From Chloroflexota bacterium (GTDB lineage Bacteria > Chloroflexota > Dehalococcoidia > Tepidiformales > Tepidiformaceae): a DNA stretch of 64,000 nucleotides. Positions within the stretch are counted from its first letter, which is position 1. Every line of letters starts with the position of its first letter. Shown here in pieces: positions 42,342 through 55,224 of the stretch. Under the pieces are notes generated by a model. The model made no database searches. It had not been told where the DNA came from and was given only the letters and a program-made list of their open reading frames with translations. Both the position numbers and the translations under genes were made by a program. Where the stretch lies: the NCBI GenBank assembly GCA_016234445.1, contig JACRBT010000002.1, forward strand, positions 124,001 through 188,000. The letters are read 5' to 3'.

Positions 42342-43748
42342 ATGCCAACGGCCTTCCCTTCACGGGTTTCGTGGTTCGTCGTCACCGTCTTTGCGGCGGG
42401 GGCAGCGGCATTCACGCTCTCGTTCTTCGTGGCGCCGATGGGCGACCTGCCCGGCCTGGCGACCGTGTTGATTTTGACCGTCCTCAGCGAGCGGTTCTCG
42501 GTGAAGCTCTACTTCGACGGCCGGGTCTCCCTGAGCTTCGTTGGCGTTGTCGTCGCGATCCTCTCCTTCGGCGCCCCGGGGGCTGCGGTGGTGGCCGCGG
42601 CGATCGCGATCTCGGGCGGCTACTACTTCGCCGAACGCTCTCCCCAGAAGCTGGCCTTCAACTTCGGGCAGCAGGAGGTTGCGGTCCTCGCGGCCGCGGG
42701 CCTGGCCGCGGCGATGGGCCTGGCGGACGGCTCAGGGCCCGCCTGGGTGCTCCTCCTCGGGGGTACCCTCGTCGGCGGGCTGGTGTTCGGCTTCACCAGC
42801 GTGGCCGTCACCGCAATCATGTCGTTGAGTTCAGGCCGCCACCCGGTGCCTGTTTACCGGTCGAACTTCACCTGGCTCTGGCCGCACTACGGCATGCTCG
42901 GGCTCGTTGCCGGCGGGCTCGCCGTTGCCTACGACCGGCTGGGGCCGGCCGGGATCATCGTCCTCGTCGTCCCGCTCGTCCTCCCCCGGCTTTCGATGAA
43001 GCAGGTGCTGGACAAGACGCGCGACAACGTCCTCCGCTTGGAACGGTCGAACGAACAGCTTCAGGTGGCCTACGTCGAGATCAAGGACATGTCGACCCAG
43101 CTCCACGAGGCCTACAACGGGACCCTCGAATCGCTTGTGGCCGCGCTCGACATGCGCGACCAGGAGACGAAGGGGCATTCGACGCGCGTGGCCACCCACT
43201 CGCTGGAACTGGCCCAGCTCCTCGGGATCAAGGACCCCGAAGAGCTGGACATGATTTACCGCGGCGCTCTCATGCACGACGTCGGCAAGATCGGCGTCCC
43301 GGACGCGATCCTCCGCAAGCCCGACCGGCTGACCGAGGAGGAGTGGGTCTTCATGCGGAAGCACCCTGCCTTCGGTTACCGGATCCTGGCCCAGGTGCCC
43401 TATCTGCGTCCGGCGGCCCGGGTTGTCCTGGCGCACCACGAACGCTGGGAGGGCGGGGGCTATCCTCGCGGACTCAAGGGCGAGAACATCCCGCTTGGAG
43501 CGAGGATCTTCGCCATCTCCGATTCCTACGACGCGATCATCACGGATCGGCCATACCGCAACGGGCAGTCGCCAGATGCGGCGTTTCAAGAGATACTACG
43601 GTGCGCGGGGACCCAATTCGATCCAAAGGTTGTCGAGGCCTTCGAAGCGGCGTTTCCGCGATGGCGGGGTGAACAGGGCGGGGCGAGTCCCCTGTACCTG
43701 CCTGCCTGGAAGGCCAGCGAGGATGAGGCAGGCAGAGCGGCGGGCTAA
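42342..43748 (+). CDS. Membrane-bound HD-GYP phosphodiesterase
   Basis: The 468-residue protein has seven or eight membrane helices (1-225), a coiled linker (LRLERSNEQLQVAYVEIKD) and a C-terminal HD-GYP domain: GHSTRVATHS, LMHDVGKIGVPD (the HD pair), HHERWEGGGYPRGL (GYP) and ISDSYDAIITDRPY. HD-GYP enzymes hydrolyse cyclic di-GMP, so this is a likely membrane-signal-controlled second-messenger phosphodiesterase. The usual D in HHExxDGxGYP is Glu. It is leaderless-type and overlaps the TetR gene by 26 bases. Confidence 0.88.
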   Translation: MPTAFPSRVSWFVVTVFAAGAAAFTLSFFVAPMGDLPGLATVLILTVLSERFSVKLYFDGRVSLSFVGVVVAILSFGAPGAAVVAAAIAISGGYYFAERSPQKLAFNFGQQEVAVLAAAGLAAAMGLADGSGPAWVLLLGGTLVGGLVFGFTSVAVTAIMSLSSGRHPVPVYRSNFTWLWPHYGMLGLVAGGLAVAYDRLGPAGIIVLVVPLVLPRLSMKQVLDKTRDNVLRLERSNEQLQVAYVEIKDMSTQLHEAYNGTLESLVAALDMRDQETKGHSTRVATHSLELAQLLGIKDPEELDMIYRGALMHDVGKIGVPDAILRKPDRLTEEEWVFMRKHPAFGYRILAQVPYLRPAARVVLAHHERWEGGGYPRGLKGENIPLGARIFAISDSYDAIITDRPYRNGQSPDAAFQEILRCAGTQFDPKVVEAFEAAFPRWRGEQGGASPLYLPAWKASEDEAGRAAG

Positions 43749-44238
43749 GACCCTCGCGACACTGCTCGAATCGGCAACCATCGCGTTCGCCGGGCGGGGC
43801 TACGAGGGCACGTCGATCGACGCGGTCGCGGCCGCTGCCGGCCTGTCGAAGGGCGCCGTCTACGCCCACTTCGAAACGAAGCTAGACCTTTTCCTCGCCG
43901 TGCTCGACCGCGCCCTGGCGGACGCGGAGCGGCGGCTGGAAGGCCCGGCCGCTGCCATCGGAGAACCCCTGGCCACGGCCGCCGACCGCTTCTTCGCGGG
44001 CGGAGACCCGGACTTGCTAACCCGGATCACGACCGAAGCCTGGCGCCTGGCGCTCACCACGCCCGCAGTCCGTGACCGCCTGAGCAGGTTCCGGACGGAA
44101 ATGGTGGCCCGGCTGGCGCACAGCGGAGTGGACGCGGGGCTGGCGCCGGCCGAAGCGCTCACCCGGGCCGGGCTCGTGACGAAACTCATCGATGGGCTGA
44201 TGGTGGAGCGCCAGCTCGAGCGGGCGATCGGCGCCTGA
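43723..44238 (+). CDS. TetR-family transcriptional regulator
   Basis: The 171-residue protein starts MRQAERRAKTLATLLESA and has the TetR HTH: GYEGTSIDAVAAAAGLSKGA then VYAHFETKLDLFLAVL. The C-terminal ligand domain is short (about 115 residues). It starts within the HD-GYP gene, so the two are co-transcribed. It is probably a ligand-released repressor; the target could be its own operon. Confidence 0.85.
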   Translation: MRQAERRAKTLATLLESATIAFAGRGYEGTSIDAVAAAAGLSKGAVYAHFETKLDLFLAVLDRALADAERRLEGPAAAIGEPLATAADRFFAGGDPDLLTRITTEAWRLALTTPAVRDRLSRFRTEMVARLAHSGVDAGLAPAEALTRAGLVTKLIDGLMVERQLERAIGA

Positions 44239-44293
44239 GACGGGGGCCGCGCCGTAAGCGACTCCAAGGGCGGTATTTCGCGGACAGAGAGAA

Positions 44294-44314
44294 AGGCGGA
44301 CCCTGCGGTCCGCC
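44294..44314 (-). terminator. Terminator of the 30-codon gene
   Basis: GGCGGACC pairs with GGTCCGCC around a four-base loop; on the minus strand the stem runs into TTTCTCTCT. It may also stop the TetR transcript from the other side. Confidence 0.75.
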
Positions 44315-44337
44315 TCCCCTTTAGGTTTGCCCCTCAG

Positions 44338-44430
44338 TTACCAGAGAACGCTGAGCATGGGGGCGGCCGAAGAAACGACCGCGACACTTGCGAGCGCGCT
44401 GAGAACGAGGAGCGTCCGGAGCCTACTCAT
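44338..44430 (-). CDS. 30-residue hydrophobic peptide gene
   Basis: ATG 44430 to TAA 44338 encodes a peptide starting MSRLRTLLVLSALASVAVVS, followed by ten residues ending SVLW. That is two arginines, a single hydrophobic helix and a short tail, like a small membrane protein or bare signal peptide. GGGAGGTG lies 4 bases before the ATG, a near-consensus promoter lies 37 or so bases further up, and a hairpin terminator follows the stop. Such complete signals around so short a frame argue that it is a real, probably well-expressed gene. Candidates are a small membrane regulator or a type I toxin-like peptide; no family is recognised. Confidence 0.6.
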   Translation of the reverse strand: MSRLRTLLVLSALASVAVVSSAAPMLSVLW

Positions 44431-44473
44431 GAGGCACCTCCCGCTTTTCCGGCCGATTCCGACCGGTCAGTAT

Positions 44474-44502
44474 GTAATACACCCGTGACAATAACGTGTC
44501 AA
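44474..44502 (-). promoter_or_regulatory. Near-consensus sigma-70 promoter of the 30-codon gene
   Basis: On the minus strand TTGACA (44497-44502), 17 bases, then TATTAC (44474-44479). This is one of the two best -35/-10 pairs I found in the window, in an AT-rich patch 50 bases past the end of dnaG. Confidence 0.7.
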
Positions 44503-44552: not shown

Positions 44553-46412
44553 TCAGGCGCGCTGGCTCGCCCAGGGCTCCTCGTGGCGGTGAATGCTCAA
44601 GCCCAGCTCCAGTTCCTCGATCGCGGTCTCGGCGAGTTCCTGGGCGTCGGCCGGGGGGCGTTCCCCACGGAAGGCTTCGACCGCGACTTCGGCGACACGG
44701 TTCGCCCCAAGGGATCGTTCCGCGGCGGAGATCTCGTCCGTGACCGCGGCCTGGTGGAGGATCCGCCGTTCCCGGAGGATGTCCTTCACCTTCGCTTCAA
44801 CGGCGCGCCGGGCTTCGTCCTCGGTCAGCGGGGGCAAGCGGAGACTCTCCAGGCGCTGGAGGTGGGCGGCGACGGCATCGCCGGCTGACTCGGCCGCGTC
44901 GGGAGGGCCGCTGGACCAGCGCAGGAAGGCCTCGCGGTCGAGCGCGTCGGTGAAGAGGTCAGGCGGGAAGTGGCGGACTTCGTGGCGGAGCTGGGGGTGG
45001 CGGATCAGCAGCGCGAGGAGCAGCTGTTCGGGGGCGACGGGACCGCCGCGCTCCCCCTGGGCGCGGGGCGACCGTCGAGGCCGCGCCGACTCCGCGATCC
45101 AGTCATGGACGGCCTGTTCGGGGACGCCGAGGTGGCGGGCGACGCGCTCTTCGTAGCGGGCACGGTCCACGGGGCTCTGGACGGCCATGAGCACCGGGAG
45201 CAGGCGCCCGAGCACGAGCTTTCGCGCTTCGACCGACGACGAGGGCCGTTCGTTGCCCATGAGCCGCTTGAGGAGGAACTCCGGGTAGGGCACGGCGCCG
45301 TCGATGGCAGCGGCCCAGCCTGCGGGGTTCTCGCGGGCGACCTCGTCCGGGTCCTTGCCCGGGGCGAGCGGCGCCACCTGCAGTTCGACGTCGAAGCCGG
45401 AGACGAGGCGGTCGGCGGAACGGGCGGAGCGGGCCATGTTCTCCGGGGAGTCGAGCCCCAGGAAGAGGCCGCCCGCGCGTTCTGCCGCGGCGAAGCCGGC
45501 TGCGTCCGGGTCCATCGCCAGGACGACGCGCCGCGCGAGCCGCTTCAGGAGGGTGACGTGGTGTTCGGTGAGGGAGGTGCCCATGGTCGCGACCACGTTC
45601 CGGAACCCGGCCTGCCAGGGGCCGATGACGTCCATATAGCCTTCAACGACGACGGCGGTCCCGGTCTCGCGGATTCCGGCGGCGGCGAGGTCCAGGCCGA
45701 AGAGCGTGCGTCCCTTGTCGAAGAGCTCGGTCTGGGGGGAGTTGAGGTACTTCGGTTCCTCGCCGTGGAGTCCGCGGCCGCCCATCGCCACATAAAGCCC
45801 GTGCTCGTCGGCGATGGGAATGATGACGCGGCCCCGGAAGCGGTCATAGGGCGCGCCGCCGGCGTCCGAGGTCACCAGCAGCCCCGCGGCGACGATGTCG
45901 TGTTCGTCGTAGCCACGGTTGACCAGGTGGTCGCGGAGTTCGCGCCAGTCGTCCGGTGACCAGCCGATGCGGAAGGCCTCGATCGCCTCGCTGGTGATGC
46001 CGCGCTTCTCCGCCAGGTACTCGCGGGCGGCCGCGCCGCCGGGAGCCTTGAGTTGCTGCTGGTAGAAGTCGACCGCCGCCGAGAGGATCGCCGCCAGCTT
46101 CTCGGTCCGGCCGCGGCGCTTCGAATCCTCGGCCGAGAGCTGTACCCCGGCTTCGGCCGCGAGTTCCTTCAGGGCGCCGCGAAAGTCGAGATTCTCGCGC
46201 TTCTGGACGAAGGAGAAGAGGTCGCCGCCTTCGCCACAGGTGCCGAAGCAGCGCCAGGTCCCGCGGTCGGGGAAGACGTAGAAGGACGGGGTCTTTTCCT
46301 GGTGGAAGGGGCAGAGGCCCTTGAAGTAGCGGCCGCTGCGCTGGAGCACGACGGAACGGCCGATGTACTCGGGCAGGTCAAGCTTCCGCTTAATCTCGTC
46401 GACGGTGTCCAC
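44553..46412 (-). CDS. dnaG: DNA primase
   Basis: The 619-residue protein has the N-terminal zinc finger (GLCPFHQEKTPSF then WRCFGTCGEGGDLFSF), the RNAP-like core (RGRVIIPI, MGGRGL, PKYLNSPQT) and the TOPRIM part (VVVEGYMDVI, VLAMDPDAAG), followed by a DnaB-binding helical C-terminus. It makes RNA primers for replication. GTG 46412 follows a TAGAAT box by 6 bases, so it is leaderless-type; the protein begins exactly where homologues do. Confidence 0.96.
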   Translation of the reverse strand: MDTVDEIKRKLDLPEYIGRSVVLQRSGRYFKGLCPFHQEKTPSFYVFPDRGTWRCFGTCGEGGDLFSFVQKRENLDFRGALKELAAEAGVQLSAEDSKRRGRTEKLAAILSAAVDFYQQQLKAPGGAAAREYLAEKRGITSEAIEAFRIGWSPDDWRELRDHLVNRGYDEHDIVAAGLLVTSDAGGAPYDRFRGRVIIPIADEHGLYVAMGGRGLHGEEPKYLNSPQTELFDKGRTLFGLDLAAAGIRETGTAVVVEGYMDVIGPWQAGFRNVVATMGTSLTEHHVTLLKRLARRVVLAMDPDAAGFAAAERAGGLFLGLDSPENMARSARSADRLVSGFDVELQVAPLAPGKDPDEVARENPAGWAAAIDGAVPYPEFLLKRLMGNERPSSSVEARKLVLGRLLPVLMAVQSPVDRARYEERVARHLGVPEQAVHDWIAESARPRRSPRAQGERGGPVAPEQLLLALLIRHPQLRHEVRHFPPDLFTDALDREAFLRWSSGPPDAAESAGDAVAAHLQRLESLRLPPLTEDEARRAVEAKVKDILRERRILHQAAVTDEISAAERSLGANRVAEVAVEAFRGERPPADAQELAETAIEELELGLSIHRHEEPWASQRA

Positions 46413-54764: not shown

Positions 54765-55224
54765 GAATTGATACTCCCGTGGTGTCCGTGTCCCGGTTGT
54801 CCGGGGGAGTGGAGCACGCGGCGCGGCAGCGGCGGGCGCGGCGATGCGCCCCGTGGTTTGTTCTGCTGCCGATGAGAGTGAGAGGGGAAGGGATTTGCGG
54901 TCCCTGCACGTGGCGCACCTTTGTCAGCCGGTTACCCATGCTGGTTTGTGTGCTGCCTGACGGCTGTGCTGCCGGGGGGCCACCCGCCGAGTGTTTCGAT
55001 ACTGCCCCCGCCTCGTCATCCGCGGTGTCCCGCGGACCTGGCGCTTGCGTTGCTCACCCTTTGCGTGCCGTGGGGTTGGTTTCGGTTGCGGGCTCACCTC
55101 CGGTGGGGACTGCGAACAGTGTGGGCGCCCGGGTTGCGAAAGGTCAATCGGAAGCGGACACGGAGGAATCGGGAGCGCCGTCCGTCTTGCCGGGCATCAC
55201 TCGCTGCGCGCACTGTGGCCGAAG
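54765..55224. other. 460-base spacer, no gene supported
   Basis: This lies between divergent glmS and the small exported protein. Several frames are open because of high GC, but none has a ribosome site with family-like sequence. I looked for RNase P, SRP, 6S and tmRNA signatures by eye and found none. Confidence 0.4.

What the first reader, a model, noticed from the sequence alone, without database searches (positions are those of the whole stretch)
44283..44502. A 30-codon membrane-peptide gene with complete, strong signals
TTGACA-17-TATTAC, an excellent GGGAGGTG ribosome site, a 30-codon hydrophobic frame and a T-rich hairpin terminator form a compact, self-contained unit between dnaG and the TetR gene. 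Automated annotation would miss it. It may be a small membrane regulator or a toxin-like peptide.
Basis: partly seen in the sequence, partly recalled or inferred. Interest (0 to 1): 0.62.

Follow-up and report, generated by a model that had tools for sequence, protein, structure and literature searches.

The report
Tiny peptide gene with conserved tail
Directly after the DNA primase gene, one family of Chloroflexota bacteria carries a real, unannotated gene for a 30-residue peptide, and in four relatives it has shrunk to only 6-9 codons while keeping the same control signals and the same last residues, which points to the peptide's tail as the working part.

Summary
The unit is on the minus strand (44502 to 44290), directly 3' of dnaG on the same strand. 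The 'terminator' is a strong hairpin without a T-run. It is a genuine gene: 20 units in 19 of 38 genomes of its order (10 genera), always 3' of dnaG. Fifteen of those genomes encode a 30-residue (once 28) peptide under purifying selection, ending in I/V-x-W. In four genera (MRSVNW, MLRTIQW, MAKIIRW, MARNITWED) the hydrophobic segment is gone; promoter, leader hairpin, ribosome site and [IV]xW end remain. On the dnaG tree these are scattered among long forms. So a plain 'membrane peptide' or 'membrane toxin' reading is weak. The best-supported reading is a short-peptide gene whose C-terminal tail is active: long forms look like a signal peptide (S-x-A site) plus an octapeptide, mini forms encode the tail directly. 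Receptor, export and expression are unknown; a nascent-chain or dual-function RNA is not excluded. No Pfam, NCBIfam or Rfam match.

The parts
44497..44502 (-). -35 TTGACA, part of a conserved block (TTGACAC-N-GTC); in the window it forms a dyad TGACA-N6-TGTCA
44474..44479 (-). -10 TATTAC (17-nt spacer); TATTAC or TATTAA in most relatives, not recognisable in G009 and G013
44449..44466 (-). 5'-end mRNA hairpin CCGGTCG-GAAT-CGGCCGG
   Evidence: A hairpin at this place in 20/20 units, with different arm sequences and loop lengths in relatives
44435..44442 (-). Ribosome-binding site GGGAGGTG within GCGGGAGGTGCC, 6 nt from GGAGG to ATG
   Evidence: replaced by TTGGAGGCAG in G009, so it behaves as a Shine-Dalgarno site
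44338..44430 (-). Peptide gene, 30 aa: MSRLRTLLVLSALASVAVVSSAAPMLSVLW; signal-peptide-like residues 1-22 and tail APMLSVLW 23-30
44338..44349 (-). Codons of the conserved C-terminal I/V-x-W plus stop (VLW-TAA here), kept in the 6-9 codon mini forms
44290..44319 (-). G+C-rich terminator-like hairpin (GGGGAGGCGGACC-GCAG-GGTCCGCCTTTCT) followed by CTCTCTG, no T-run; could also stop convergent TetR transcription
   Evidence: compensatory changes in relatives; no T-run
44553..46412 (-). dnaG, the gene directly upstream; the constant neighbour of the unit in 19 of 19 genomes
43729..44238 (+). TetR-family regulator, convergent; not a constant neighbour
42342..43748 (+). Membrane HD-GYP protein, convergent; adjacent in most unit-bearing genomes but elsewhere in G017 and G010

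Best explanation
A dedicated short-peptide gene of one Dehalococcoidia order. A promoter, a stabilising hairpin at the mRNA 5' end, a strong ribosome site and a 3' hairpin make a stable monocistronic mRNA of about 190 nt (inferred from sequence). The functional part of the product is the C-terminal tail of about 6-8 residues ending in [S/T][I/V]xW. In long forms the tail follows a signal-peptide-like leader (basic N-end, about 14 hydrophobic residues, S-x-A at -3/-1), so Sec export and cleavage to an octapeptide such as VPALTISW or APMLSVLW is the expected route (inferred). In mini forms the leader is deleted and the tail is translated directly. The peptide most likely acts as a small signal or modulator on an unidentified partner. 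Shown: gene, conservation, mini forms, tail conservation. Inferred: export, cleavage, signalling role.
For: 20 units in 19 genomes. dN/dS 0.13-0.48. The two G009 tandem copies differ by 2 synonymous and 0 amino-acid changes. Columns 20 (S) and 22 (A) are invariant among the eight peptides aligned while column 21 varies T/S/A/W, with P24 and W30 invariant: the (-3,-1) pattern of signal peptidase I. Four mini ORFs keep [IV]xW at or near the end, shuffle probability 2.5e-5 to 1.3e-3 each. On the dnaG tree mini forms are scattered: parsimony needs 3 changes, starred branches force at least 2. Mini peptides (6-9 aa) are the size of the predicted mature tail. Precedent: ComS of S. mutans can signal inside the cell without processing, export or import (PMC6211226).
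Against: No receptor, peptidase or exporter found: no RNPP_C domain in 38 genomes, and oligopeptide-binding proteins are universal and so uninformative. Loss of the export leader is awkward for a secreted signal. G009 has V, not A, at the -1 position. In G002 the W is followed by ED. SD spacing is long (11 nt) in G017 and G013. No expression data.
Confidence: 0.45

Rival explanations
1. Small membrane protein: the 30-residue peptide stays as a single membrane helix and modulates a membrane partner, for example the neighbouring membrane HD-GYP protein; the mini forms are derived or degenerate.
For: Hydrophobic core conserved (codons 11-20: 0.87 amino-acid identity); Kyte-Doolittle maximum 1.8-2.7 over 15 residues. 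A full-length HD-GYP orthologue is found in nearly every unit-bearing genome, usually next door, and in only one genome of the order found to lack the unit (G022).
Against: Four genera lack the helix but keep promoter, hairpin, ribosome site, an in-frame ORF and the IxW end. In G017 and G010 HD-GYP sits elsewhere while the unit stays with dnaG. The co-occurrence is confounded by shared synteny and ancestry.
Confidence: 0.22
2. Nascent-chain function: the terminal [IV]xW-stop slows or arrests the terminating ribosome close to the 3' hairpin, controlling stability or termination of this short RNA.
For: The conserved residues sit at the very C-terminus in long and mini forms, so only the upper ribosome tunnel is shared; hexapeptide and TnaC-type leaders act at termination (literature found, not read in full); the stop codon lies about 12-30 nt before the hairpin.
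Against: No same-strand gene lies behind the hairpin to be regulated: the next gene is convergent in the window and in most relatives. G002 has two residues after the W.
Confidence: 0.13
3. Dual-function or purely regulatory small RNA whose ORF is secondary.
For: Both end hairpins kept while their arm sequences change; codons 2-10 show excess codon identity (0.72, against 0.49 with sd 0.06 in dnaG windows); fold z -3.8.
Against: Peptide conserved with dN/dS well below 1; G009 copies differ only synonymously; no Rfam match at E up to 1; consensus fold covariation term weak outside the end hairpins.
Confidence: 0.12
4. Type I toxin of a toxin-antitoxin pair.
For: Short hydrophobic peptide, stable structured mRNA, tandem duplication in G009.
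Against: No promoter-like site on the opposite strand; hydrophobic part dispensable in four genera; fixed chromosomal position beside dnaG.
Confidence: 0.04

Closest known systems
Short linear signalling peptides made from small precursors (ComS/XIP, SHP, enterococcal pheromones)
   Same: Tiny gene, hydrophobic or signal-like leader in the long form, expected active C-terminal 7-8 residues; ComS can act inside the producing cell (PMC6211226)
   Different: No adjacent Rgg/RNPP receptor gene, no RNPP_C domain in the order, and natural leader-less 6-9 codon versions
mccA minigene (microcin C precursor MRTGNAN)
   Same: Anatomy of the mini forms: strong ribosome site, 6-9 codon ORF, terminator hairpin, expected monocistronic RNA (PMC6495379)
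   Different: C-terminal Trp instead of the required Asn; no mccB-like gene behind it, next gene convergent in most
Small single-helix membrane proteins of bacteria
   Same: About 30 residues, basic N-terminus, one hydrophobic segment
   Different: The helix is absent in four genera while the tail is kept
Termination-arrest leader peptides (TnaC, hexapeptide antibiotic leaders)
   Same: Conserved residues at the very end of a short ORF followed by a hairpin
   Different: No regulated gene downstream on the same strand

Membership tests
Protein-coding small gene | Frame and amino acids conserved beyond what DNA conservation gives | tested here: met
   dN/dS 0.13-0.48; 30 codons in 14 of 15 long-form genomes (28 in G009); G009 copies 2 synonymous, 0 nonsynonymous
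Small membrane protein | Hydrophobic helix kept in all members | tested here: not met
   Absent in G002, G010, G013, G017
Small membrane protein | Membrane localisation | not testable with these tools
   Needs fractionation
Secreted short linear peptide signal | Signal peptide with S/A-x-A cleavage site before a short conserved tail | tested here: inconclusive
   S20-x-A22 pattern in long forms except G009; no cleavage predictor or experiment; leader absent in mini forms
Secreted short linear peptide signal | Linked or co-occurring receptor (RNPP/Rgg) | tested here: not met
   RNPP_C (PF18768) in 0 of 38 genomes; none adjacent; other receptor types not tested
mccA-type precursor | C-terminal Asn and adjacent mccB | tested here: not met
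   All end in I/V-x-W or WED; next gene convergent in most
Type I toxin-antitoxin | Antisense RNA promoter overlapping the gene | tested here: inconclusive
   No promoter-like site on either strand by consensus scan; the scan also misses the unit's own promoter, so its silence is weak evidence
Leader peptide or attenuator | Regulated gene downstream on the same strand | tested here: not met
   Convergent gene in the window and in most relatives; G010 not resolved
Known RNA family | Rfam match | tested here: not met
   None at E up to 1

The most novel reading that the evidence does not exclude
A peptide signalling or regulatory gene that evolution has repeatedly cut down to a bare 6-9 codon minigene, keeping promoter, leader hairpin, ribosome site and a C-terminal [I/V]xW signature, so that in living relatives the active peptide is synthesised directly instead of being cut from an exported precursor.
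Probability: 0.35. Interest if true: 0.75.

Novelty: new variant of a known kind. Interest (0 to 1): 0.55.

Why it matters
Genes of 6-9 codons are almost never recognised. Here the promoter, leader hairpin, ribosome site and synteny identify four of them, and comparison with 30-codon homologues names the residues that matter. It gives a ready test case for how small a functional gene can be, and a candidate peptide regulator in a phylum where, to my knowledge, none is described.

Tried and rejected
The leader palindrome as a TetR operator: rejected as main reading, because arm sequence and loop length vary while pairing is kept, and the TetR gene leaves the locus in G017 and G010. HD-GYP as receptor: co-occurrence is suggestive but explained by synteny, and G022 has HD-GYP without a unit at dnaG or by pattern. 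A regulon of the promoter dyad: it is essentially unique to this promoter. Whole-RNA consensus fold: only end hairpins convincing (MAFFT misaligned G009 there). Pairing of post-stop GGAGC with GCTCC codons: seen by eye, not carried by all members, not pursued. Wider distribution: hits outside the order look like chance; three look-alikes in G159 have similar ribosome sites before ordinary exported-protein genes. Pfam and NCBIfam: no match to the peptide. One search was an empty control alignment with no use.

Full report
Observation. Read on the minus strand the unit is TTGACA (44502-44497), 17 nt, TATTAC (44479-44474), a leader with the hairpin CCGGTCG-GAAT-CGGCCGG (44466-44449), GCGGGAGGTGCC with the core GGGAGGTG (44442-44435), ATG at 44430, stop TAA at 44338, and a strong G+C hairpin at about 44319-44290. 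The upstream neighbour on the same strand is dnaG (44553-46412); the TetR gene (to 44238, plus) and the HD-GYP gene converge on it. The 3' hairpin lacks a T-run, and a strict consensus scan reports neither promoter nor terminator.

It is not chance. A DNA search of 60 related genomes plus the window's own gave matches in 14, at 70-85% identity outside the window's own. An HMM of the peptide over 393 genomes of the class finds strong hits only in the window's own family. Reading downstream of dnaG in the available relatives and a pattern TTGACAC-N-GGGAGGTGC over the order show the unit in 19 of 38 genomes and 10 of 18 genera, always directly 3' of dnaG. The pattern finds one match in each of 18 of these and none elsewhere in the order; G009, with a diverged ribosome site, carries two tandem copies. 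The class is Dehalococcoidia, judged from one record title that matches a genome hit. The genus of the complete g13 genomes is probably Tepidiforma; that is inference.

It is coding. In 14 long-form genomes the frame is exactly 30 codons (G009: 28). Pairwise dN is 0.10-0.30 against dS 0.42-0.97. The G009 copies differ by two synonymous codons and no amino acid, although their promoter-leader region differs at 9 of 71 positions. Some RNA-level constraint is also present: codons 2-10 keep the same codon at 0.72 of identical residues, against 0.49 (sd 0.06, maximum 0.62) in 30-codon windows of dnaG. This is common near start sites and does not remove the coding evidence.

The surprise is the mini form. 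In four genera the same promoter block, leader hairpin and ribosome site are followed by only 6-9 codons: MRSVNW (G017), MLRTIQW (G010), MAKIIRW (G013), MARNITWED (G002). All keep I/V-x-W at or next to the end, as in the long forms (SVLW, TISW, TIRW, TITW, VISW, GISW, SISW). In composition shuffles of each short region the chance of such an ORF end is 2.5e-5 to 1.3e-3. On a dnaG tree the mini forms are scattered among long forms: parsimony needs 3 changes, and well-supported branches force at least 2. Because the long forms share a homologous hydrophobic segment, repeated loss is the simpler history. G002 and G010, nested beside long-form genera, are the securest loss; G013 lies in an unresolved position at the base, so its direction is open. 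What remains of the N-terminus differs (MLRT-, MAR-, MAK-, MR-), which suggests different deletions.

The leader hairpin is present in 20 of 20 units. Its arms and loop vary (CCGGTCG/CGGCCGG, CCAGCCG/CGGCTGG, CCCGGG/CCCGGG, GTCGGCC/GCCGAT and others) while pairing is kept. Energies lie 1.0-5.4 sd below shuffles, and several g13 members and G013 are only marginal (z about -1.0 to -1.4). Changing sequence and spacing argue against a fixed protein operator. A hairpin at the extreme 5' end of an mRNA usually stabilises it (general knowledge). The 3' hairpin also shows compensatory changes. A recognisable -10 is missing in G009 and G013, so a plain sigma-70 promoter is not assured everywhere.

How it most likely works. 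Long forms read as a signal peptide: basic N-end, about 14 hydrophobic residues, then S-x-A, where positions 20 and 22 are fixed while 21 varies T/S/A/W, followed by an eight-residue tail [V/A]P-x-[L/M]-x-[I/V]-x-W (G009 departs at -1). The mini forms are the size of that tail. The common denominator is a 6-8 residue peptide ending in [I/V]xW, so I favour a short active peptide, exported and cut from the long precursor or made directly by the mini genes. Export, cleavage and a signalling role are inferred. The absence of RNPP_C-type receptors and the loss of the leader in mini forms weigh against a classical pheromone. Signalling inside the producing cell has a precedent in ComS (PMC6211226), and a heptapeptide minigene with a similar layout is mccA (PMC6495379).

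Rivals. A membrane helix protein explains the long forms but not the mini forms. A nascent-chain effect explains the C-terminal position of the conserved residues, but there is no regulated gene behind it. A dual-function RNA is possible. A type I toxin is unlikely. The membrane HD-GYP protein is a tempting partner because full-length orthologues are found in nearly every unit-bearing genome (the G024 contig ends before it, G009 is cut) and in only one genome found to lack the unit. But HD-GYP and unit are neighbours in most genomes and may be lost together, G017 and G010 show them unlinked, and G022 has HD-GYP alone, so this is no more than a lead.

Limits. No expression data, no annotated records of these species, several genomes are draft assemblies, the sample is one order, and signal-peptide status was judged by eye. 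In G003 and G023 the region after dnaG was not available, so absence there is by pattern search only.

Noticed in passing
54902-55056 (-): glmS ribozyme-type riboswitch match (63.3 bits, Rfam RF00234) in this Chloroflexota genome.
   Followed up: no
42342-43748 (+): HD-GYP protein with a large hydrophobic N-terminal domain and no Pfam match there; orthologues in most genomes that carry the peptide unit, together with a TetR gene overlapping its 3' end and a CaiB-like gene nearby; this block has moved in G017 and G010.
   Followed up: partly
L233 (G009 C275) 300-860, as read on the reverse strand: Tandem duplication of the complete unit: two promoters, two hairpins, two identical peptides, two terminators.
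   Followed up: partly
L237, L238 (G159): Three exported-protein genes with near-identical promoter and ribosome-site regions (TTGACA..TATACT..GCGGGAGGTGCAACAATG) and near-identical signal sequences before different bodies, like a cassette family.
   Followed up: no
L056, L068 (G022, G014): dnaG is followed directly by the CaiB-like gene, as if the whole segment unit-TetR-HD-GYP had been deleted or never inserted.
   Followed up: partly
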